Assembly: GCA_947479085.1 (NCBI GenBank)
Contig: CANJYB010000009.1
Span: forward strand, 1-64,000
Reading direction: 5' to 3'
DNA length: 64,000 nucleotides
Source of the DNA: Bacteroidota bacterium
GTDB lineage: Bacteria > Bacteroidota > Bacteroidia > 2-12-FULL-35-15
Made by a program: the position numbers and the translations under genes. Under the pieces are notes generated by a model. The model saw only the letters and a program-made list of their open reading frames with translations, was not told where the DNA came from and did no database searches. Below, piece by piece: positions 22,530 through 32,982 of the stretch (within the stretch, counting starts at the first letter, position 1; every line of letters starts with the position of its first letter).

Positions 22530-23939
22530 ATGAGCGCTTATTCCAAAATAACTTCATCCATTCTATCCACCTTGCAGCAAATTGCCGGCAACGACTATGT
22601 TTTTTTTGATAAAGAAATTCTTGCTCAGTATGCCCACGATGAAACCGAAGAGTTGGTGTATTTACCCGAAGTGGTAGTAAAACCGGGTACAACAGAAGAA
22701 GTAGCTGCCATTTTAAAACTGGCCAACAAGGAATTAATTTCTGTCACTCCCCGAGGAGCAGGCACAGGGCTTAGTGGCGGAGCATTACCCATTTTTGGAG
22801 GTATTATTCTTTCCATGGAACGTTTTAATAAAATCATTCAGGTGGATGAGCGAAACCTGCAGGCTACTGTGGAACCGGGTGTTATCAACGAGGTGTTTCA
22901 AAATGCGGTGAACGAAAAAGGATTGTTTTACCCTCCCGACCCGGCCAGCAAAGGCAGTTGTTTTTTAGGAGGAAACGTGGCCGAAAGCAGTGGCGGACCT
23001 AAATGCGTAAAGTACGGTACCACCAAGGATTATATTTTAAATCTCGAAGTAGTGCTGCCTACAGGCGAAATAATATACACCGGTGCCAACACCTTAAAAA
23101 ATTCTACCGGCTATAACCTTACCCAGTTGATGGTAGGCAGCGAGGGCACTTTAGGCATTGTTACTAAAATTATTGTCAGGCTGTTGCCTCATCCCAAATA
23201 CAATTTGCTGATGTTAATTCCCTTTCGCAACCTGGACCAAGCCTGCGAAGCAGTCAGCCAGACCTTCCGTGCAGGCTTTACACCAAGCGCTATGGAGCTG
23301 ATGGAACGGGATGCATTGCTATGGGTAAGCAGGTTTGTTCAATCGAACGTGATAAAGATAGAAGACGATATACAGGCCCATTTATTAATAGAAGTAGATG
23401 GAAACGATATGGATGCATTGATGAAGGAAATGGAAGCCATTGGCGAACTGATGAGCAACTACAACATTGCCGATATTTTATTTGCAGATGCCGAAGCACA
23501 GAAACAGGAACTTTGGAAACTGAGAAGAAGAATAAATGAAGCCGTAAAATCCAATGCCATCAGTAAGGAACAGGACACCGTGGTGCCAAGAGCGGAATTA
23601 CCGGCCCTGGTAAAAGGCATTAAGAAAATAGGAGGGAGGTATAATTTCAAATCCGTTTGTTATGGCCATGCCGGAGATGGCAACCTGCATATCCGCATTA
23701 TTAAAGGCGAACTGACGGACGAACAATGGGAGGGAAGCTATATTAAAGAAGCAATAGCAGAAATATTTACGCTTTGCAAACAGCTGGGTGGTACCATTAG
23801 TGGTGAACATGGAATAGGACTGATACAGCAGGAATACATGAACATTGTTTTTTCTGAAAAAGCCCTAAGTATTCAAAGAGAAATTAAAAAAGTATTTGAC
23901 CCCAATAACATTTTGAACCCCGGAAAAATGTTTGGGTAA
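22530..23939 (+). CDS. FAD-linked oxidase (GlcD / D-lactate dehydrogenase type)
   Basis: 469 residues. PCMH-type FAD-binding domain about 35-215 (TPRGAGTGLSGGALPIFGG, DPASKGSCFLGGNVAESSGG, LMVGSEGTLGIVTKI). C-terminal FAD-oxidase domain about 220-469 with CYGHAGDGNLHIRI and GTISGEHGIGLIQQEYM, the conserved His-containing catalytic motifs. It oxidises a 2-hydroxy acid such as glycolate or D-lactate and passes electrons to quinone. No glcE/glcF partners are adjacent. Its last 22 codons are matched by a decayed copy at 24549-24617. Confidence 0.92.
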   Translation: MSAYSKITSSILSTLQQIAGNDYVFFDKEILAQYAHDETEELVYLPEVVVKPGTTEEVAAILKLANKELISVTPRGAGTGLSGGALPIFGGIILSMERFNKIIQVDERNLQATVEPGVINEVFQNAVNEKGLFYPPDPASKGSCFLGGNVAESSGGPKCVKYGTTKDYILNLEVVLPTGEIIYTGANTLKNSTGYNLTQLMVGSEGTLGIVTKIIVRLLPHPKYNLLMLIPFRNLDQACEAVSQTFRAGFTPSAMELMERDALLWVSRFVQSNVIKIEDDIQAHLLIEVDGNDMDALMKEMEAIGELMSNYNIADILFADAEAQKQELWKLRRRINEAVKSNAISKEQDTVVPRAELPALVKGIKKIGGRYNFKSVCYGHAGDGNLHIRIIKGELTDEQWEGSYIKEAIAEIFTLCKQLGGTISGEHGIGLIQQEYMNIVFSEKALSIQREIKKVFDPNNILNPGKMFG

Positions 23940-23998
23940 GGGAAGTAAAATGTTAAGTTACCTCCGCTGACTCGAGTTTCCAACTCGTGCCATTTATT

Positions 23999-24018
23999 TA
24001 AAAGCGTCCCGCTTTTTT
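23999..24018 (+). terminator. Probable terminator after the FAD-linked oxidase gene
   Basis: AAAGCG, TCC loop, CGCTTT, and further T: a short 6-bp stem with a T tract, 60 bp after the stop. Confidence 0.5.
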
Positions 24019-24128
24019 GTTTTAGCCATTGTTGGTGTTTTCACCAACAACCTTCTTTATTAATTTTGTAGTGAATCAAGTTTGTTGGTGAAAAAATACC
24101 CACAAAGGCGGAAACACATAATATGATT

Positions 24129-24172
24129 CGGCCGGAGACCGGTTAAAATGGACGTAGGGGGACCTTACGCCT
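24129..24172. repeat. 44-bp intergenic repeat (inverted copy at 63855)
   Basis: 38 of 44 positions match the reverse complement of 63855-63898. It contains the cores GGCCGGAGACCGG and GACGTAGGGGGACC and occurs in non-coding DNA both times. Confidence 0.65.
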
Positions 24173-24202
24173 CTCAGAAACTTATTATGTTTCTGATTCC
24201 CT

Positions 24203-24319
24203 TTAATTAAAATTATAGTTGGAAACAAATAGCACTGCCGCTGTAGTTACCAATAATAAAATTGTTGCTCTTCTTAGCAGATCATTAAGATCGATTGTTT
24301 GTGTAGATGTTTTTCTCAT
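24203..24319 (-). CDS. Possible 38-residue single-helix membrane peptide
   Basis: ATG at 24319 gives MRKTSTQTIDLNDLLRRATI, then a hydrophobic stretch LLLVTTAAVLFVSNYN, then TAA. A basic N-terminal half followed by one membrane helix is what a real mini-protein or a type I-like toxic peptide looks like. There is no clear -7 box and no homologue in the window. It lies in the gap between the FAD-linked oxidase and the DUF2283 gene, which otherwise holds only repeats and a gene remnant. Confidence 0.4.
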   Translation of the reverse strand: MRKTSTQTIDLNDLLRRATILLLVTTAAVLFVSNYNFN

Positions 24320-24548
24320 TGTTTTTTATTTGTGTTAATTAATTGCTTCAATTTAATCAATTCGTATATTTTTTGTGTTCGATATGGTTATTTATACCAG
24401 ACAAACACCTCCATGGTTTCAAAAATAAACAGATTAATTTTGTGTTTATTTTCAAATTTCTGAAACGGTTTTGAAAACCCTTGTACATGGCTCATTTCCT
24501 AATTAAGCAAAGGGGGCGCTTCTCCCGTTTATGGGTTGACATATCTAC

Positions 24549-24617
24549 CATCAAAAAGAAATAAAAGTGGTAGGTGGCCCTAATAATATTTGGAAACCCA
24601 GAAAAATGTTTGGGTAA
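24549..24617 (+). pseudogene. Decayed copy of the 3' end of the FAD-linked oxidase gene
   Basis: In frame, the 22 codons before TAA read HQKEIKVVGGPNNIWKPRKMFG, against IQREIKKVFDPNNILNPGKMFG at the real C-terminus, and the last 40 bp match at 35 positions. No upstream part survives. It is either a remnant of a second oxidase gene or a duplicated gene end left by an insertion into the 3' end of the oxidase gene. Confidence 0.7.
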
Positions 24618-24650
24618 AAATAAACATGCCCCAGCGGGAAATTATGAATT

Positions 24651-24688
24651 AAAAAAATCCCGCTCCTGAAAATGGGCGGGATTTTTTT
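24651..24688. terminator. Bidirectional terminator
   Basis: AAAAAAATCCCGC (24651-24663) pairs with GCGGGATTTTTTT (24676-24688) around a 12-nt loop. It ends the leftward DUF2283 transcript. Confidence 0.85.
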
Positions 24689-24711
24689 GAAACAACTTTT
24701 TTATTTTGTAG

Positions 24712-24906
24712 TTAAGCTACTTCGTATTCTACCTTATTTATATTTTTCATTTTCTTTGAAGCATTAAGAACTTCAATGCCGACAATAGAACCTTCGTCAT
24801 CATAATCTAAAATGATGCCTGATTTTTCTTCGTCACTTTCGTTAATTTTATTATCGCTGAATTGAATGTAGAGTATGTCTACTTCTTTATTATATTTAAT
24901 CTTCAT
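24712..24906 (-). CDS. DUF2283 domain protein
   Basis: 64 residues: MKIKYNKEVDILYIQFSDNK, acidic middle, then IILDYDDEGSIVGIEVLNAS, the DUF2283 signature. Family members are small soluble proteins, often beside DUF4258 or other toxin-antitoxin-like genes. The upstream neighbour (24924-25088) is a small helical protein 17 bp away, and the two are probably co-transcribed. Function not established. Confidence 0.88.
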   Translation of the reverse strand: MKIKYNKEVDILYIQFSDNKINESDEEKSGIILDYDDEGSIVGIEVLNASKKMKNINKVEYEVA

Positions 24907-24923
24907 CTGTTTTTTAGTAATAA

Positions 24924-25088
24924 TTATACTTTCTTTTGTTTTAATTTAAAGTCGGTCATGACCTGCTTTAAATAATTCAAATATTTTTGTTTATCTTGAA
25001 TAAATTGTTCAGTTAATTCGGTGCGTACTTTGCGCATAAATTCAACGGAATGAAATTCCGGATTTGCCTGATTATTCTTTGTTTCCAT
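24924..25088 (-). CDS. Small helical protein upstream of DUF2283
   Basis: 54 residues with ATG at 25088. The core EFMRKVRTELTEQFIQDKQK resembles short Bacteroidota antitoxin-like proteins of the pattern MRxIRxxLxxE. The C-terminus is rich in Lys. It is likely the first gene of a two-gene unit with DUF2283. I cannot name it, and no partner toxin is identified. Confidence 0.6.
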   Translation of the reverse strand: METKNNQANPEFHSVEFMRKVRTELTEQFIQDKQKYLNYLKQVMTDFKLKQKKV

Positions 25089-25234
25089 AAGTTACTTCTT
25101 TAGGGGTTCTAATATCTATTGTTGAAAAACCGTATTTTAAATTAATTGAATTATATTGTCGGATGCGAAAAAAATTTACTCGCTTTTTACTTTTAGTCCC
25201 GAAACTTCGGGAGTACTTAGATAATCCGAAATTA

Positions 25235-25492
25235 TTAATTTAAGGTCTCATAACTTTCTCCTCTTTTCCACTTAGCAATTAAGTCTTTTTTAGCTTCTTT
25301 AAGTTTAAGAAACGAACCAAGGAATTTCACAGGTTTTCTATTAGGATTTTCAGCATCTTCAATGTAGCAATCAAACATTCCTGATTCGTTAGGAAAATAA
25401 GAATTTTCGGGGTGCCTGATACACCATCTACCTGATGAATCGCCATCAAACATATATGTTCCGGCATCTACAATTTCAAATTTTGCTTCCAT
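25235..25492 (-). CDS. Hypothetical protein (85 residues)
   Basis: MEAKFEIVDAGTYMFDGDSS begins a small strand-rich domain with a conserved-looking GRWCIRHPENSYFPNESG segment, then a basic helix (KLKEAKKDLIAKWKRGE). No signal peptide or membrane segment. I do not recognise it. Transcribed leftward, 146 bp from the DUF2283 unit, so it may be separate. Confidence 0.6.
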   Translation of the reverse strand: MEAKFEIVDAGTYMFDGDSSGRWCIRHPENSYFPNESGMFDCYIEDAENPNRKPVKFLGSFLKLKEAKKDLIAKWKRGESYETLN

Positions 25493-25620
25493 TGCTATAG
25501 TGTTTTAATATGCAAATATAAGATATTTTGACTGTTGATTAAAAAGTTAGAAATAAAATTTGAGATTTCTAAACTCATTCGATTTATTCCTATTTTTACC
25601 ATCACTTAAACACAAATTAA

Positions 25621-25746
25621 ATGTCCTTACCAACTATTAAACAGCAAACAAAATTTTCCTTTTCTGGTCATGATTCATTTATTTGTAAGCTTTTTTGGTT
25701 AAAAAGAGGGTATAACTTTGTTGTTTTCTACAAAATTTTCGATTGA
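25621..25746 (+). pseudogene. N-terminal stump resembling DUF4007
   Basis: 41 codons: MSLPTIKQQTKFSFSGHDSF then ICKLFWLKRGYNFV and a quick stop. FSGHxxFxxxxxWLKKGYDFV is, from memory, the opening of DUF4007 proteins (about 300 residues), which are found next to DndC/PAPS-reductase-like genes. Everything after the first 35 residues is missing and the next gene begins at once in another frame. A deletion joining the stump to the following operon is the simplest reading. It could also be a functional leader ORF. Confidence 0.5.
25695..25720 (+). promoter_or_regulatory. Candidate promoter of the PAPS reductase-like operon
   Basis: TTG at 25695-25697, 15 bp, TAACTTTG at 25713-25720. The spacing is slightly short. 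It lies inside the DUF4007-like stump and shows why the TTG at 25718 is unlikely to be a start codon. Confidence 0.4.
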
Positions 25747-25762
25747 ACAAATTTATCACTTA

Positions 25763-26878
25763 ATGAAAAAGAAAGTACGTCATGTCATTGGAATTTCAGG
25801 TGGTAAAGACAGCGGAGCTTTGGGTATTTATCTTAAAGATAAATATCCGTCCTTAGATGTAGAATACTATTTTACTGATACAGGAAAAGAATTGCAGGAA
25901 ACTTATAATCTGATTAAAAATTTAGAAAGCTATTTAGGGAAAACAGTAAATAAACTGGAAGCCGCAAATAAAAGCAATGAAGACCCTTTTGACCATTACT
26001 ATAAATTGTTTGGGGGGTATCTTCCTTCATCAAATGCCCGCTGGTGTACTAAAAAATTAAAACTTGAACCTTTTGAAAATTATGTGGGTGATGATTATGT
26101 AATTTCTTACGTGGGTATTCGGGGTGATGAAGACCGTGAAGGTTATATTTCTAAAAAGCCAAACATTCAATCCATCTTCCCGTTTCGAAGAAACATCTGG
26201 AGCGAGGATGTAATTGCAAAGGTATTGAACAATGCAAATATCAAACTTATATTAGGGTATTATAAAAGCACTGTTGATGCTGATAAGTTTCAACGCATTG
26301 AAGAAATTGTTATTGAACCTATTTCAGTTAAGTTTTTGCAAGTGCAAAAACTTAATGCTTTGTTGGATTTAGGGATAAAAGAATTTAATAAAGTGGTGTA
26401 TCAGTTTATTAAAGAAAAAACAGATTATCCATTAGCGCATACCGATGAATTTCCTTTGATTGATAATGAAGATATTTTGGTGCGTGATGATATTTTTAGA
26501 ATATTGCGGGAGAGCGGAGTGGGAGTACCTGAATATTATGAAAAAATTAAATTTGAAGTGGATGGCAAAGTAGGGGAATATGCACGTAGCCGTTCCGGCT
26601 GCTATTTTTGTTTCTTTCAGCAAAAAATTGAATGGGTTTGGTTATTAGAAAATCATCCTGAGAAATTTAAGTTGGCAACCAAATACGAAAACGAAAAAGA
26701 AGGTTTTACCTGGAACCAACACGAAAGTTTAAAAGATTTAGCACACCCAAATAGAGTAGCGCAAATTAAGCGTGATTTTCTAAACAGAAAAGAGAAAGAA
26801 AAATCAGCTAAATCTCCTTATTTAATAGATATTTTGGATGATACAGAAAGTGGTAGTTGTATTAGTTGTTTTATTTAA
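25763..26878 (+). CDS. DndC/PAPS-reductase-like ATP pyrophosphatase
   Basis: 371 residues from ATG 25763. N-type ATP-pyrophosphatase fold: PP-loop SGGKDS at 12-17, then YYFTDTGKELQETY. RWCTKKLKLEPF gives C95, SGCYFC gives C280 and C283, and the last residues CISCFI give C366 and C369. Such cysteines bind an Fe-S cluster in DndC-like sulfurtransferases. These enzymes activate a substrate by adenylation for sulfur transfer; DndC modifies the DNA backbone. Length is nearer to DndC-like proteins than to assimilatory PAPS reductase (about 240). Followed after 12 bp by an HNH nuclease gene. No cysteine desulfurase is nearby. Confidence 0.85.
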   Translation: MKKKVRHVIGISGGKDSGALGIYLKDKYPSLDVEYYFTDTGKELQETYNLIKNLESYLGKTVNKLEAANKSNEDPFDHYYKLFGGYLPSSNARWCTKKLKLEPFENYVGDDYVISYVGIRGDEDREGYISKKPNIQSIFPFRRNIWSEDVIAKVLNNANIKLILGYYKSTVDADKFQRIEEIVIEPISVKFLQVQKLNALLDLGIKEFNKVVYQFIKEKTDYPLAHTDEFPLIDNEDILVRDDIFRILRESGVGVPEYYEKIKFEVDGKVGEYARSRSGCYFCFFQQKIEWVWLLENHPEKFKLATKYENEKEGFTWNQHESLKDLAHPNRVAQIKRDFLNRKEKEKSAKSPYLIDILDDTESGSCISCFI

Positions 26879-26890
26879 AATTTGGTATTT

Positions 26891-27925
26891 ATGAAATTAC
26901 CAAATTCAAAAGCCCTCCCAATAAATTTATTATCCGCTTGTTTTAACAACACCGTTGCTACCTATAAATTCTATTGGTTTCTGTCAATTCTTCAATCATT
27001 GGAAGAAGGAAAAACAAAAATTAATAAAAGAGAATTGTTTTCCAGGATGATTTCCAACGCTTGGTACACTGTAAACTATTTTCATATTTCTTTTGGTAAA
27101 CAAGATTTAATTCAACAAGCAATTCAAGTTGTAAATGCAAATGAAAATATTGCTATTGATGAAAAGTATCAAATTGTTTTTCAAGAACTTTCTACTACAA
27201 CAAATAGAATAACAGAAAAACAACTTTGGCATTTCAATAAAAATGTTCCTCATTGGTTTATGAGTCCTTGGTTTCAGAAAATGGAGAGAAACGAAATTTA
27301 TCAAGAATCACAAAATTTTAAGAATAAATGTTTGTATTCTTTATATGATGATGAAATTGTAATTAATCCCGAATGGAAAAATTATTTAATTGAAAACGCA
27401 AGAGTGCTAAAGGATTTTTGTTATTGGAATCTTGCTTTGTTTTTACAAACTAAAAATCCAAATGTTCCAGACATTCCAAACAAGTTGATTAAACCTGCAT
27501 TAAGAAGCAGTTTAACCCAACAACGAACACAGTTTTGGGATATTGTTTTAAAAGAATTAGGTTCTGTAAAATGTATATATACTGGAAAAAATCTTACCAT
27601 TGGAAATTATGCAGTTGAACATTTCATTCCTTATAATTTCGTTTCACACAATTTAATTTGGAATTTAATTCCTGCGGATAAAATATTTAATAGTTCCAAA
27701 AGTGATAAACTTCCGCCACTTGAAAAATATTTTAATTCTTTTTTTTCTTTACAAAAAACAGCAATTGAAATTGTAAAAACAAAATCTCCAAAAAACAAAT
27801 TCCTTGAAGATTATTTATCAATCTTTCCCGATACTGATTTAAGTTTTACAAAAGAAAAATACAAAGAAAGAATACAACCACTAATTACCATTGCATCAAA
27901 TAATGGTTTTGAATTTCTAAAGTGA
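26891..27925 (+). CDS. HNH endonuclease family protein
   Basis: 344 residues from ATG 26891. The N-terminal 220 residues are helical with no motif I know. The HNH core is near the C-terminus: CIYTGKNL (C228), YAVEHFIPYNFV (E243-H244), LIWNLIP (N258) and NSSKSDKLP (N267, K270). The structural CxxC zinc pair is reduced to CxxT. HNH enzymes cut DNA. Placed between an ATP pyrophosphatase and a methyltransferase gene, it would suit a modification-dependent nuclease. Much more AT-rich than its surroundings: 27361-27420 counts 17 G/C of 60, against 26 of 60 at 23041-23100. Confidence 0.85.
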   Translation: MKLPNSKALPINLLSACFNNTVATYKFYWFLSILQSLEEGKTKINKRELFSRMISNAWYTVNYFHISFGKQDLIQQAIQVVNANENIAIDEKYQIVFQELSTTTNRITEKQLWHFNKNVPHWFMSPWFQKMERNEIYQESQNFKNKCLYSLYDDEIVINPEWKNYLIENARVLKDFCYWNLALFLQTKNPNVPDIPNKLIKPALRSSLTQQRTQFWDIVLKELGSVKCIYTGKNLTIGNYAVEHFIPYNFVSHNLIWNLIPADKIFNSSKSDKLPPLEKYFNSFFSLQKTAIEIVKTKSPKNKFLEDYLSIFPDTDLSFTKEKYKERIQPLITIASNNGFEFLK

Positions 27926-28782
27926 TTCAACAAAATCAATACAACCATCTTACAGCAAAGGAAAGAGATACACTTTCCTTTCCAGCAAAACTATTATTAA
28001 ATAAAAAGGTTTTAATTGGCGATGTTTTAGATTTTGGTTGTGGCTTTGGAAAAGATGTAGAATTACTAAAAGAAAAAGAAATAAATATAGTCGGCTACGA
28101 CAAACATTATTTTCCAAAGTACCCAACAAATAAATTTGACACCATCATTTGTTTTTATGTGCTTAATGTTTTGATGCCCGAAGAACAAGCAAATGTATTA
28201 ATGGAAATCTCTCAATTACTAAAGCCAACAGGCAAAGCATACTTTGCAGTTCGCAGAGATATACAATATGAAGGATTCCGAACTCACAAAATCCATCAGA
28301 AGCAAACTTATCAATGCAATGTAAAGTTAGGTTACAAATCAATTTTCAAAAATGAAAATTGCGAATTGTATGAATACAAACATTACAACCAAATTAATAG
28401 AAAAGAAAATCCGGATTGTCCTTTTTGTAATCCAAATTCGCAAACCGAATTAATTTTAGAATCGGCTACCGTTTATGCAATCTTTGATAAATTTCCTGTA
28501 AGCAACGGACATACTCTAATAATTCCTAAAAATCATTTAAAAAATTATTTTGAACTTACCTTTAAAGAACAATCCGCCTGTTGGTTTATGTTAAACAAAG
28601 CTAAAGAAATTTTACAGAAGAAATTCAATCCTGACGGATTCAATATTGGAATAAATATTAATGAAACTGCAGGGCAAACTATTCCACACGCGCACATACA
28701 TTTAATTCCAAGATACAAAGATGATGTTAAAGAACCAAGAGGTGGAGTGAGAGGAGTGATTCCTGAAAAGAAAAACTATTAA
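27922..28782 (+). CDS. Fused class I methyltransferase - HIT domain protein
   Basis: 286 residues with GTG start in a GTGA overlap with the HNH gene stop, so tightly coupled. Residues about 1-150 form a SAM-dependent methyltransferase (VLDFGCGFGKD at about 36-45, GYDK at 58-61, FDTIICFYVLNVL at 72-84). Residues about 163-286 form a HIT nucleotide hydrolase: CPFC zinc-type opening (C166, C169), and HAHIHLIPR with the catalytic histidine triad at 256, 258 and 260. The HIT domain hydrolyses nucleotidyl-phosphoramidates such as AMP-lysine. It could clear adenylated intermediates made by the first gene (inference). The methyl target is unknown. Confidence 0.88.
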   Translation: MIQQNQYNHLTAKERDTLSFPAKLLLNKKVLIGDVLDFGCGFGKDVELLKEKEINIVGYDKHYFPKYPTNKFDTIICFYVLNVLMPEEQANVLMEISQLLKPTGKAYFAVRRDIQYEGFRTHKIHQKQTYQCNVKLGYKSIFKNENCELYEYKHYNQINRKENPDCPFCNPNSQTELILESATVYAIFDKFPVSNGHTLIIPKNHLKNYFELTFKEQSACWFMLNKAKEILQKKFNPDGFNIGININETAGQTIPHAHIHLIPRYKDDVKEPRGGVRGVIPEKKNY

Positions 28783-28812
28783 CCAATAAAACCTCAATTT
28801 AATTTCAAAATA

Positions 28813-29016
28813 TTAATTATTCCAAATATACGATAATAGTATTTCCGTGGTAAGAATTATTTTTTCAAATCCCCGGGGAGTTTCTACTTCAACAAAATAT
28901 CTCACGCCTACAAATTTATCTTTCACAAAAAGAATTTCTCCGTAATGATAGAGGTAACTTTCAAAGTATGGCATTGTGAATATTATTTTATCGCCAGATG
29001 ATAATTTAGTTTGCAT
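28813..29016 (-). CDS. Hypothetical protein (67 residues)
   Basis: A small strand-rich protein (GDKIIFTMPYFESYLYHYGE, FVGVRYFVEVE, IILTTEILLSYIW), SH3-like in pattern. No family recognised. It faces the PAPS-HNH-HIT operon tail to tail and marks the edge of the 2.5-kb repeat region. Confidence 0.5.
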   Translation of the reverse strand: MQTKLSSGDKIIFTMPYFESYLYHYGEILFVKDKFVGVRYFVEVETPRGFEKIILTTEILLSYIWNN

Positions 29017-29244
29017 GTTATGCTTTTTCTTTCCAAAAATAACGAATATATTTTTAAAATTAGCAAATAGAGTGGCAAGATGTTACAAAATAATCTGCAC
29101 GAGAGGCTCTTGCTGGCTGGTGTTTTAAAAAATGAGGTTTTTTAAAGCATTTAAAAAAACAATAAAAAATGCAGTATTAAATTATAAAACCAGGAAAGGT
29201 TTTTCACTTTTCCGGCTAAAGAAAAAGTTACCCGCACCTCGTAA

Positions 29245-29277
29245 AAAGGTACTACCTTTCCAAAAGGTAGTACCTTT
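29245..29277. repeat. Nested 33-bp palindrome, copy 1
   Basis: AAAGGTACTACCTTT, CCA, AAAGGTAGTACCTTT. The two 15-bp arms are perfect complements, and each arm is itself a near-palindrome about its centre. It borders the left end of the 21-bp array. Confidence 0.85.
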
Positions 29278-29289
29278 AAAATTCAAACC

Positions 29290-29958
29290 GTTTCATTATG
29301 GTTTCAAAACGTTTCGTTTTGGTTACATAATGTTTCATTATGTTTAAGTAATGATTTAAAACGTGATGATAATGAAAGTAAACCTGCTTACAATGAAATA
29401 GAATGAAACGATAATGAAAGTAAACCTGTTTACAACGAAATAGAATGAAACGATAATGAAAGTAAACCTGCTTACAACGAAATAGAATGAAACGATAATG
29501 AAAGTAAACCTGCTTACAATGAAATAGAATGAAACGATAATGAAAGTAAACCTGCTTACAATGAAATAGAATGAAACGATAATGAAAGTAAACCTGCTTA
29601 CAATGGTTTAAAATGAAACGATAATGAAAGTAAACCTGCTTACAACGATTTAAAATGAAACGATAATGAAAAGTAAACGAGACTAAAATGGTATAGAATG
29701 ATTAAATAATGTTTTATTTCCATTAAGTAATGGTTTATTTCAGTTAAGTAATGGTTCATTTCCATTAAGTAATGGTTTATTTCCGTTAAGTAATGGTTCG
29801 TTTCCGTTAAGTAATGATTTATTTCCGTTAAGTAACAGTTCGTTTCCGTTAAGTAATAGTTTATTTCCGTTAAGTGATAGTTCTTTTCCGTTAAGTAATG
29901 GTTTATTTCCTTTAAGTAATGGTTCGTTTCCGTTAAGTAATGGTTCATTTTTGCTCAA
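29290..29958. repeat. Continuous 21-bp-periodic array (about 32 units)
   Basis: Unit boundaries fall every 21 bp from 29290, most units ending in AAT and beginning with G. In 29374-29667 units alternate between a GAAAGTAAACCTGCTTACAA type and a GAAATAGAATGAAACGATAA type, giving a 42-bp dimer. From 29711 the unit becomes GGTTTATTTCCGTTAAGTAA, still in phase, and again alternates (TTTA versus TTCG or TTCA) as a 42-bp dimer. One unit near 29668 has a 1-bp insertion. No unique spacers are present, so it is not CRISPR. Confidence 0.85.
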
Positions 29959-29991
29959 AAAGGTGCTACCTTTCCAAAAGGTAGTACCTTT
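29959..29991. repeat. Nested 33-bp palindrome, copy 2
   Basis: AAAGGTGCTACCTTT, CCA, AAAGGTAGTACCTTT. One arm base differs from copy 1. It abuts the right end of the 21-bp array directly. Confidence 0.85.
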
Positions 29992-30239
29992 AAAAAGGCC
30001 ATAATACTCTACCTGCCCATATTCCAAATAGCTTTGCTATTTTAGTTTCCGGTTTCAAACAAGCAAAAGCAATATAAATCAGATAGCAGGAAAATAAATT
30101 TGAATTCGAATAAACCTCAATTTCCTCACAAAAAACCTAAAAATCTGGAAAAGACAATAATGTGTAGGGAATATGCTTAAAGCTTACCGGAATACATCTA
30201 AAAGCTGCTCTAATATCCAAAAAAGTGAAAGAAAAGGAT

Positions 30240-30428
30240 ATTAAAGTAACGTAAATACACTTTCCCGCCACTTTAATAGACATTCCCGACACATTAATGT
30301 CTATTAAAGTCACCGATTTGTTAATTAAGGTATAAGGAATAGACATTAACTACACCTTTAAATGTATTAAAGTAACCTGAATGGATATTAATGTAACTTA
30401 AACAGACATTAAGGCTACTTATAAATCA
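30240..30428. repeat. Second 21-bp-periodic array (nine degenerate units)
   Basis: Nine exact 21-bp steps, seven of which begin ATTAA (for example ATTAAAGTAACCTGAATGGA at 30366 and ATTAATGTAACTTAAACAGA at 30387). The consensus is unrelated to the array at 29290. It lies between palindrome copies 2 and 3. The stretch 29992-30239 between them shows no gene. Confidence 0.7.
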
Positions 30429-30596
30429 ACTCCCGTGTAATCATGGTTTTGTATCAAAATCCGGCTGAAAATCAATTCGTTTTGGGAATGGAAAAAGTAA
30501 AAATGGTTCCATAAACTACTATACAAATTTAGATTCCTTCCCGCACGTGCGGGTTTCGGAATGACAGAATCATTTGTTAGAGAGGGAGATGCTCAA

Positions 30597-30629
30597 AAAG
30601 GTACTACCTTTCCAAAAGGTAGTACCTTT
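30597..30629. repeat. Nested 33-bp palindrome, copy 3
   Basis: Identical to copy 1 over all 33 bp, and preceded by the same TGCTCAA found before copy 2. Confidence 0.85.
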
Positions 30630-30639
30630 ATACTTCATA

Positions 30640-31195
30640 CTACGAAGAGATAAGCGGCCTTTCCAAATAATTATTTTTTATTGTTTCATTAAGTGAATGT
30701 CGTGTATTACCCCTGTCAGGGTTTGGAACCCTGACAGGGGTGCAGAACAAACAAAAAGAAAACTAAAAGCCATACCCTATCCGCCTAAACCCGATTGCAG
30801 TGGAAATCCTTTTTCTTTTATCCTTCTAAAAGAAAAAGATTGAAGCGAAAAGCGGGAAGACATTAAACTACGAAGAGATAAGCGGCCTTTTCAAATAATT
30901 ATTTTTATTGTTTAGTGAAGTGAATGGGGTGTATTACCCCTGTCAGGGTTCTAAACCCTGACAGGGGTAGAACAAACAAAACTAAACTAAAAGCGATACC
31001 CCGTCAACCTAAACCCGATTGCAGTGGAAATCCTTTTTCTTTTATCCTTCTAAAAGAAAAAGATTGTAGCGTAAAGCGGGAAGACATTATACTACGAAGA
31101 GATAAGCGACCTTTTCAAATAATTATTTTTATTGTTTCGTTAAACGAATTGGGAGTATTACCCCTGTCAGGGTTCCAAACCCTGACAGGGTTGCA
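30640..31195. repeat. Three tandem copies of a 224-228-bp repeat
   Basis: Copies start with CTACGAAGAGATAAGCG at 30640, 30868 and 31092. The third stops after the central palindrome. Each contains a palindrome with 14-15-bp arms (core CCCCTGTCAGGGTT) at 30709-30741, 30936-30968 and 31160-31191. The first two also hold a hairpin CTTTTTCTTTT/AAAAGAAAAAG flanked by GATTGCAGTGGAAATCC and AAGCGGGAAGA. The same hairpin family occurs at 33114-33222. No coding sequence. Confidence 0.85.
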
Positions 31196-31375
31196 GGAAA
31201 GGGCTATAGATAAGGGATTGTAAATAACCGACTATGTGTAAAACGAAGTTTTCTATCCTTATCTTCAAAGTAATAAAACCTATGATACTATGTGTTTCAA
31301 TTTTTTCTTATTAGCTTGTAAAGAATCATTTTGAAATTAATAATCTCCTGACTTAATACCGATAGTGCTGTTTTA

Positions 31376-31406
31376 CCCCTGTCAGGGTTCCAAACCCTGA
31401 CAGGGG
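31376..31406. repeat. CCCCTGTCAGGGTT palindrome, stand-alone copy
   Basis: 14-bp perfect arms around CCA, matching the palindrome inside the tandem repeats but without their flanking sequence. Confidence 0.8.
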
Positions 31407-31466
31407 AATAAAAAAAAACAAACCCAAATTAACCCCGAAATAAATTTCCATTCCATTGCAATCTGT

Positions 31467-31474
31467 TATATTTG
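31467..31474 (+). promoter_or_regulatory. -7 promoter box for accC
   Basis: TATATTTG, exact TAnnTTTG match, 26 nt before the accC ATG. No TTG at the usual upstream distance. Confidence 0.5.
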
Positions 31475-31500
31475 TTCCCTAATAGTTTTAAGAAAAGAAG

Positions 31501-32982
31501 ATGAATAAAATACTGGTTGCAAACAGAGGAGAAATAGCGCTGAGGGTAATGCGTTCGTGCAGGGAAATGGGAATAAAAACGGTGGCAGTGTATTCGGAAG
31601 CGGATAGAAACGCGCCTTTTGTGAAATATGCGGACGAAGCAGTTTGTATAGGGCCTCCGCCTTCTAACCAGTCGTACCTGCTGGGTAATAAAATAATAGA
31701 AGTTTGCAAGCAGCTGAATGTGGATGGGATACATCCGGGCTATGGTTTTTTGTCGGAAAATGCGGAGTTTGCACAGGCTGTAAAAAAAGCAGGATTGATA
31801 TTTATTGGACCTACAGCAGAAGCCATGCGAATGATGGGGGATAAGCTATCGGCAAAGGCTGCCGCAAAAAAATATAAAATACCGATGGTTCCGGGTTCGG
31901 AAGGAGCTATTACTTCGGTAAAGGAAGGAAAGGAAGTGGCGGTGGCTACCGGTTTTCCTATCCTGATAAAAGCAAGTGCAGGGGGAGGAGGCAAGGGAAT
32001 GCGGATAGTTGAAAACATTGACGAGTTTGAAGAACAGATGAAACTGGCGGTGAGTGAGGCTACTTCGGCCTTTGGCGATGGTTCTGTTTTTATAGAACGA
32101 TATGTGGCCGGCCCGCGTCATATTGAGATACAGATATTGGGCGATACGCATGGTAACATTGTGTATTTGTTTGAGCGCGAATGTTCGATACAAAGGCGCC
32201 ACCAGAAGGTGATTGAAGAAGCTCCTTCGTCAGTACTTACTCCCGAAATACGCAAAGCGATGGGCGAATGTGCGGTGAATGTGGGCAAAGCCTGCGACTA
32301 TACCGGGGCTGGTACGGTGGAGTTTCTGCTGGATGAAAACAAGAACTTTTATTTCCTGGAAATGAATACCCGCCTGCAGGTGGAACATCCGGTGACGGAA
32401 ATGATAACGGGTGTGGATTTGGTGAAGGAACAGATAAAAGTAGCAAGGGGAGAAAAATTATCGTTTAAGCAGGAAGATTTACGGATCCATGGTCATAGCC
32501 TGGAAGTACGCGTGTATGCCGAAGACCCGGCCAATAACTTTTTACCGGACATTGGCAAACTGGTTACTTACAAGCGCCCGCAAGGGTTGGGAGTGCGAGT
32601 GGACGATGGTTTTGAAGAAGGAATGGACATTCCTATTTATTACGACCCGATGATTTCCAAGCTTATTTCGTTTGGAAAGGACAGGGAAGAGGCCATTAAC
32701 CGCATGATTCGCGCTATTGATGATTATAAAATAATAGGGGTGGAAACCACACTTCCGTTCTGTAAATTTGTTTTGAAACACCAGGCGTTTACGTCAGGTA
32801 ACTTTGATACGCATTTTATTAATCACTACTTTAAGCCGGAAATGCTTATTACCGAAAACGAGGACGAAGCCATTATTGCTGCCTTGTTTGGTGCCAAGCT
32901 GATGAATGAAAACAAGGCCAGCCTGGCAGTTAATAAGGAAGAAACTACCGAAATTTCGAAATGGAAAGCGAATAGGTTGTAA
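31501..32982 (+). CDS. accC: Biotin carboxylase subunit of acyl-CoA carboxylase
   Basis: 493 residues. N-terminal domain MNKILVANRGEIALRVMRSC with DGIHPGYGFLSENAEFA. ATP-grasp domain with KASAGGGGKGMRIV and the catalytic region FLEMNTRLQVEHPVTEMITGVDL. C-terminal biotin-carboxylase domain with GHSLEVRVYAEDP. It carboxylates the biotin of a carrier protein using ATP and bicarbonate. The C-terminal extension of about 45 residues relative to E. coli AccC (449), and the absence of accB here, leave open whether it belongs to acetyl-CoA or another acyl-CoA carboxylase. Confidence 0.93.
   Translation: MNKILVANRGEIALRVMRSCREMGIKTVAVYSEADRNAPFVKYADEAVCIGPPPSNQSYLLGNKIIEVCKQLNVDGIHPGYGFLSENAEFAQAVKKAGLIFIGPTAEAMRMMGDKLSAKAAAKKYKIPMVPGSEGAITSVKEGKEVAVATGFPILIKASAGGGGKGMRIVENIDEFEEQMKLAVSEATSAFGDGSVFIERYVAGPRHIEIQILGDTHGNIVYLFERECSIQRRHQKVIEEAPSSVLTPEIRKAMGECAVNVGKACDYTGAGTVEFLLDENKNFYFLEMNTRLQVEHPVTEMITGVDLVKEQIKVARGEKLSFKQEDLRIHGHSLEVRVYAEDPANNFLPDIGKLVTYKRPQGLGVRVDDGFEEGMDIPIYYDPMISKLISFGKDREEAINRMIRAIDDYKIIGVETTLPFCKFVLKHQAFTSGNFDTHFINHYFKPEMLITENEDEAIIAALFGAKLMNENKASLAVNKEETTEISKWKANRL

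What the first reader, a model, noticed from the sequence alone, without database searches (positions are those of the whole stretch)
25763..28782. Three-gene operon: DndC-like pyrophosphatase, HNH nuclease, methyltransferase-HIT fusion
Seen: SGGKDS PP-loop plus five cysteines in gene 1, an HNH core in gene 2, DFGCGFGKD and HAHIHLIPR in gene 3, with gaps of 12 bp and a 4-bp overlap. Known: DndC/SspD-type ATP pyrophosphatases put sulfur into the DNA backbone, HNH enzymes are common restriction effectors, and HIT enzymes hydrolyse adenylated products. Inference: the trio could be a DNA modification-and-cleavage or tRNA/nucleotide-sensing defence system lacking the usual Dnd/Ssp partners. The AT-rich composition and repeat-laden flank support acquisition by transfer. 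I know of no described system with exactly this set.
Basis: partly seen in the sequence, partly recalled or inferred. Interest (0 to 1): 0.85.

Follow-up and report, generated by a model that had tools for sequence, protein, structure and literature searches.

The report
Broken DNA-sulfur operon keeps nuclease cassette
The three genes are what is left of a bacterial anti-virus operon that marks its own DNA with sulfur: two of the marking genes were deleted, while a nuclease gene and a methyltransferase–HIT gene remain intact, and in other bacteria those two travel together as a pair that often has no sulfur-marking genes beside it.

Summary
The trio is real: gene 1 is SspD (PADLOC E 2e-94), gene 2 a Cas9-like HNH_4 nuclease, gene 3 a methyltransferase–HIT fusion. 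It is not a system lacking Ssp partners by design. Just upstream (25622-25747) lie the first ~34 codons of sspB (DUF4007), ending ~30 bp before sspD. The rest of sspB and all of sspC (~4 kb in relatives) are gone, and no SspB, SspC or DndC was found elsewhere in the genome. Of 80 fetched sspD relatives, 67 sit in intact sspB-sspC-sspD operons with varying downstream modules; one Hymenobacter has sspB-sspC-sspD-HNH-MTase/HIT. HNH+MTase/HIT is a separable cassette: in 395 Bacteroidota genomes all 17 full-length MTase-HIT genes lie beside an HNH gene, mostly without Ssp genes, and several neighbouring Ssp writers are independently broken. The window's HNH and MTase-HIT keep every near-invariant residue (dN/dS about 0.1 against the closest relative). 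Best reading: a writer-less relic of an Ssp phosphorothioation operon whose HNH/MTase-HIT effector survives because it does not need the sulfur mark to spare the host. I found no published description of the cassette; its activity is untested.

The parts
25622..25747 (+). sspB (DUF4007) stub: MSLPTIKQQTKFSFSGHDSFICKLFWLKRGYNFV then VFYKIFD and a stop; only the first ~34 residues are SspB
   Evidence: DUF4007 profile positions 1-23 at 25660-25728; 72% identity over 25 aa to L007 SspB, tblastn E 4e-7; DNA 82% over 66 nt to the L007 sspB start, E 2e-10; sequence read
25726..25762 (.). deletion junction region; relatives carry the rest of sspB plus about 1075 codons of sspC here (about 4 kb)
   Evidence: comparison with 67 intact loci; SspC absent from the genome with positive controls
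25763..26878 (+). sspD, ATP-pyrophosphatase/sulfurtransferase of the phosphorothioation writer, intact 371 aa; keeps the ATGA start context of the usual sspC/sspD overlap
   Evidence: PADLOC SspD E 2.3e-94; 67-68% identity to sspD of intact operons; 127 of 130 near-invariant columns kept
26891..27925 (+). HNH_4 nuclease (family A), helical N-terminal region plus Cas9-like HNH core
   Evidence: Pfam HNH_4 1.6e-7; Cas9 HNH by profile, E 8e-5; 35 of 35 near-invariant columns kept
27922..28782 (+). class-I SAM methyltransferase (N-terminus like TIGR04096, 'DNA phosphorothioation-associated putative methyltransferase') fused to a HIT domain with an intact HAHIH triad
   Evidence: Pfam HIT 1.5e-21 and Methyltransf_23 1.3e-9; TIGR04096 partial 4.3e-14; 52 of 52 near-invariant columns kept
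23940..31500 (.). variable insert between two conserved housekeeping genes (FAD-linked oxidase 22530-23939 and biotin carboxylase 31501-32982) that carries the operon
   Evidence: in genome G004 (L185) the two genes are about 130 bp apart; G014 and G002 hold other genes there

Best explanation
The locus is the surviving 3' part of a horizontally acquired sspB-sspC-sspD-HNH-MTase/HIT operon. An internal deletion removed most of sspB and all of sspC (shown by the stub and by comparison). Without the SspB nickase and the SspC ATPase the cell almost certainly cannot write phosphorothioate (PT) marks, although a cysteine desulfurase is present; sspD is therefore probably a passenger (inferred). The HNH nuclease plus MTase-HIT is a separable two-gene effector cassette (shown by neighbourhoods) that attaches to Ssp writers but also stands alone; its HNH family also sits beside a Dnd writer. 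Its retention in several loci with broken writers implies that, like SspE and unlike SspFGH, DndFGH or DndI, it does not attack unmarked host DNA by default (inferred). Most likely HNH cleaves or nicks invader nucleic acid upon a trigger. MTase-HIT, always beside an HNH gene, probably acts on HNH's substrate or product, for example by methylating it or removing AMP/nucleotidyl groups from cleaved ends, or controls HNH activity (inferred, weak).
For: SspD identity. 67 of 80 fetched relatives have intact B-C-D; most of the rest are cut by contig ends. The sspB stub is in place. No SspC, DUF4007 over cut-off, or DndC elsewhere in the genome; SspC and DndC searches had positive controls. Cysteine desulfurase present. 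The complete five-gene operon exists in L060 (Hymenobacter), its B and C scoring as SspB and SspC. Family-A HNH also lies by SspB/SspC/SspD/IscS/SspF (L087), SspB/SspC (L120, L086) and DndC (L123). All 17 full-length MTase-HIT genes found in 395 Bacteroidota genomes lie beside an HNH gene (HNH types confirmed). Broken writers beside HNH: window; G083 (SspB residues 2-105 only); G325 (SspC residues 3-697, no SspD); pSYSM (partial SspC); L028/L029 (SspC interrupted); L072 (SspD split, no B or C). HNH and MTase-HIT conserved, dN/dS about 0.08-0.15 against G083. Toxicity contrast between SspE and SspFGH/DndI without PT: PMC8092258, PMC11662687.
Against: No activity data exist. The deletion could be an assembly error; no reads were available. 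SspD is intact rather than decaying, so either the deletion is recent or SspD does something. The counts of broken writers are small and partly come from draft metagenome assemblies. HNH-A is found without MTase-HIT (L087, L120, cyanobacterial plasmids), so MTase-HIT is not essential to it. HIT residues vary in some homologues (HASLH in L060, HAALH in L121), so HIT catalysis may not be universal.
Confidence: 0.68

Rival explanations
1. The trio is a self-sufficient minimal system: SspD, guided by HNH or by the methyltransferase, modifies DNA or RNA without SspB and SspC.
For: All three ORFs are intact and conserved and closely spaced.
Against: The sspB stub and the missing sspC point to deletion. 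Among the 80 fetched sspD relatives only L072 shows SspD with HNH/MTase-HIT and no SspB or SspC nearby, and there SspD is itself split. SspB nicking is reported as essential for PT formation (PMC8092258).
Confidence: 0.07
2. Pure decay: the whole island is a dying defence relic with no remaining function, and HNH and MTase-HIT are intact only because the deletion is recent.
For: SspD is intact although probably useless; a duplicated gene fragment and tandem repeats surround the operon.
Against: The closest relative (G083, 74% aa identity for MTase-HIT) has also lost the writer, by a different deletion, and the pair is under purifying selection between the two. The pair exists without Ssp genes in many genomes.
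Confidence: 0.17
3. HNH is the PT-dependent restriction component of the Ssp operon and is inactive without PT, as SspE is; MTase-HIT tunes it. The window pair is then silent.
For: HNH-A sits beside Ssp and Dnd writers in several lineages. PT-activated SspE is harmless without PT (PMC11662687).
Against: Most MTase-HIT/HNH pairs have no PT writer beside them and yet stay intact. HNH has no DUF262 or sulfur-binding domain by Pfam.
Confidence: 0.25
4. HNH plus MTase is an ordinary methylation-based restriction-modification pair: the methyltransferase protects host DNA from HNH.
For: A nuclease and a methyltransferase lie next to each other in all 17 surveyed cases.
Against: The methyltransferase matches Methyltransf_11/23/25 families and no DNA-methylase Pfam family. 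HNH-A occurs without it in several loci. The HIT fusion is unexplained by this model.
Confidence: 0.08

Closest known systems
Ssp phosphorothioation system (SspABCD with SspE or SspFGH)
   Same: SspD is a clear member; an sspB stub lies in the canonical upstream position; the operon order of intact relatives is B-C-D followed by a module
   Different: sspC and most of sspB are lost here; the downstream module is HNH plus MTase-HIT instead of SspE or SspFGH
DndI / SspE type HNH effectors
   Same: an HNH nuclease beside a PT writer
   Different: those are DUF262 plus DUF1524-HNH proteins (PMC11662687); gene 2 is HNH_4 with a helical N-terminal region and no DUF262
Dnd-linked SBD-SRA-HNH enzymes (ScoMcrA type)
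   Same: HNH linked to PT loci
   Different: no SRA or sulfur-binding domain found in gene 2
TIGR04096 DNA phosphorothioation-associated putative methyltransferase
   Same: first ~90 residues of gene 3 match its N-terminus
   Different: gene 3 scores 52 bits against a cut-off of 150 and carries a HIT domain in place of the long C-terminus
PbeABCD and DUF262+SIR2 modules behind SspBCD
   Same: they occupy the same position downstream of sspD in relatives
   Different: unrelated protein families

Membership tests
Ssp system (as a complete system) | SspD-type ATP pyrophosphatase | tested here: met
   PADLOC SspD 2.3e-94, 314 bits
Ssp system (as a complete system) | SspB (DUF4007) nickase | tested here: not met
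   only a ~34-residue stub; no other DUF4007 hit in the genome
Ssp system (as a complete system) | SspC ATPase | tested here: not met
   absent from the genome, found at E 0 in three control genomes
Ssp system (as a complete system) | cysteine desulfurase SspA/IscS in the cell | tested here: met
   hit at 3.8e-66 elsewhere in the genome
Ssp system (as a complete system) | PT in genomic DNA | not testable with these tools
   needs LC-MS
Dnd system | DndC over the TIGR03183 cut-off | tested here: not met
   gene 1 scores 20.3 bits against 290.4; no DndC in the genome, control G138 positive
Type-4 BREX | BrxP-type PAPS reductase | tested here: not met
   gene 1 is far closer to SspD (2.3e-94) than to BrxP (2.1e-12)
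Type-4 BREX | PglZ and BrxL | not tested
   not searched for in the genome; none among the three genes
SspE/DndI effector family | DUF262 plus DUF1524 HNH | tested here: not met
   Pfam finds only HNH_4 over cut-off in gene 2
SBD-SRA-HNH PT-dependent restriction enzymes | SRA or sulfur-binding domain | tested here: not met
   Pfam finds only HNH_4 over cut-off in gene 2
Methylation-based restriction-modification | DNA methyltransferase family or catalytic motif | tested here: not met
   the methyltransferase part of gene 3 hits only Methyltransf_11/12/23/25/29/31 and, weakly, CheR models
HNH+MTase/HIT cassette (named here) | HNH gene directly followed by an MTase-HIT gene | tested here: met
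   window, and all 17 MTase-HIT genes of the phylum survey, window included
Thoeris (ThsC HIT) | ThsA/ThsB partners | not tested
   HIT domain resembles ThsC at 4e-10; no such partner is among the three genes

The most novel reading that the evidence does not exclude
HNH plus MTase-HIT is an undescribed stand-alone anti-invader system of Bacteroidota (about 4% of sampled genomes). It can plug into phosphorothioation writers as an effector and survives, apparently under selection, when the writer is lost.
Probability: 0.4. Interest if true: 0.68.

Novelty: new variant of a known kind. Interest (0 to 1): 0.5.

Why it matters
In a published survey of 2,678 sspBCD loci only about 15% had sspE or sspFGH nearby (196 and 199 strains, plus 36 with both; PMC8092258), so most Ssp writers lack a known restriction partner. 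HNH with MTase-HIT is a concrete candidate for part of that gap. Writer-less loci such as this one separate two models that can be tested: effectors that need PT to spare or attack DNA, and effectors that work alone. The locus is also a warning: an odd trio can be a deletion derivative rather than a new system.

Tried and rejected
Structure: AlphaFold models of gene 2 (pLDDT 66.5) and gene 3 (58.8) were too weak, and the fold search for gene 2 gave no match at E<=0.001, so no fold-based claim is made. Viral contigs: one partial HNH relative, no gene 3 relative. Phage records: one distant HNH. PDB: no SspD relative. The catalytic-Asp-to-Glu change in the window HNH (VEH instead of LDH) looked like decay, but L125 and L129 share it, so that idea was dropped. 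A remnant of the SspC C-terminus in the 37 bp before sspD was sought: the ATGA overlap is kept, but the residues are not recognisable. Literature searches found no description of an HNH plus MTase-HIT pair.

Full report
Observation. The three ORFs, spacings and motifs are as described. Pfam confirms PAPS reductase (gene 1), HNH_4 (gene 2), and HIT plus class-I methyltransferase (gene 3), all over cut-off. PADLOC names gene 1 SspD at 2.3e-94, far ahead of BrxP and DndC. The N-terminus of gene 3 resembles TIGR04096, the DNA phosphorothioation-associated putative methyltransferase, below cut-off.

What relatives look like. Of 80 GTDB loci with the closest sspD genes, 67 have full-length sspB (~294 aa), sspC (~1075 aa) and sspD in that order; most of the others are cut by contig ends. 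B and C of L060 score as SspB and SspC. What follows sspD varies: PbeABCD-like genes, DUF262 plus SIR2, and, in L029, L051, L060 and L070, an HNH gene of the window's family; in L072 the HNH and MTase-HIT genes precede sspD. L060 (Hymenobacter) carries the full set sspB-sspC-sspD-HNH-MTase/HIT.

The missing genes. The window has no sspC and no full sspB. A DUF4007 profile hits 25660-25728, covering model positions 1-23. The ORF 25622-25747 reads MSLPTIKQQTKFSFSGHDSFICKLFWLKRGYNFV and then seven unrelated residues and a stop. At DNA level this stretch aligns to sspB starts at 81-85%. Recognisable sspB ends about 30 bp before the sspD start, whose ATGA context matches the usual sspC/sspD overlap. 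Relatives hold about 4 kb here. SspC is absent elsewhere in the genome, with positive controls, and so is DndC. A cysteine desulfurase is present. The simplest reading is one internal deletion; an assembly error cannot be excluded without reads.

Acquisition. None of 35 other same-genus genomes holds the HNH gene. The flanking oxidase and biotin carboxylase genes are about 130 bp apart in G004 and hold other genes between them in G014 and G002, so the operon lies in a variable site. Low GC agrees (third-position GC 0.27-0.29 against 0.35-0.36 in the flanking genes).

The cassette. In 395 Bacteroidota genomes, 17 have a full-length MTase-HIT and 11 a long family-A HNH match. In all 17 the neighbour is an HNH gene: family A, the related family B (profile comparison E 5.7e-13), or an HNH_2 protein. 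Some genomes have HNH and HIT genes close together without the methyltransferase (G130, G324). Family-A HNH also sits beside Ssp genes in cyanobacterial pSYSM, in a Hymenobacter plasmid with SspF, and beside DndC in G138. Genomes with HNH-A carry SspC more often than others (3 of 11 against 18 of 384, Fisher p 0.016).

Recurrent writer damage. Beside HNH the writer is broken in the window, G083 (SspB residues 2-105), G325 (SspC residues 3-697, no SspD), pSYSM (SspC partial), L028/L029 (SspC interrupted; near-identical pair, counted once) and L072 (SspD split, no B or C nearby). In the sspD-anchored set, loci that could be assessed were broken in 2 of 3 with HNH against 2 of 68 without (Fisher p 0.007; small numbers, draft genomes). 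In G083 the HNH gene is split over two contig ends, joined here by inference. HNH and MTase-HIT of the window keep all near-invariant columns, and dN/dS against G083 is about 0.08-0.15.

Mechanism. Published work says SspFGH and DndI harm cells that lack PT, whereas SspE does not. A nuclease that persists after its writer is lost must be of the harmless-by-default kind or independent of PT. I favour a triggered HNH nuclease; the dedicated MTase-HIT most likely acts on its substrate or products or controls it. The HIT step is the weakest part: some homologues lack the middle histidine. A KptA gene between HNH and MTase-HIT in L029 hints at RNA, but it is one case.

Verdict. The interpretation as a distinct trio lacking partners is replaced by a deletion derivative of an Ssp operon that carries an apparently undescribed, separable HNH plus MTase-HIT cassette.

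Noticed in passing
window 24551-24620: A second, diverged copy (81% identical) of the last ~67 bp of the oxidase gene 22530-23939 lies ~680 bp downstream of the original, perhaps a scar of insertion at this site.
   Followed up: partly
window 29282-31190: Dense tandem repeats: 21/42-bp arrays and a 224-bp unit with 2.4 copies; short pieces of the latter also match L182 (same genome) and L190 (same genus).
   Followed up: no
L029:5668-6207: A KptA/Tpt1 RNA 2'-phosphotransferase gene lies between the HNH gene and the MTase-HIT gene.
   Followed up: partly
L004:7603-9151: Another internal deletion in an Ssp writer: SspB residues 2-135 run straight into SspC residues 713-1095, with sspD intact and a GIY-YIG gene downstream.
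   Followed up: partly
L088 (Allochromatium vinosum pALVIN01): A family-A HNH gene lies in a CRISPR-bearing plasmid region with an RtcB-family gene a few kb away.
   Followed up: no
L170:10660-12327: A family-B HNH carries its own N-terminal methyltransferase domain and is followed by an MTase-HIT gene.
   Followed up: no
window 24712-24906: A small DUF2283 gene on the opposite strand within the island.
   Followed up: no
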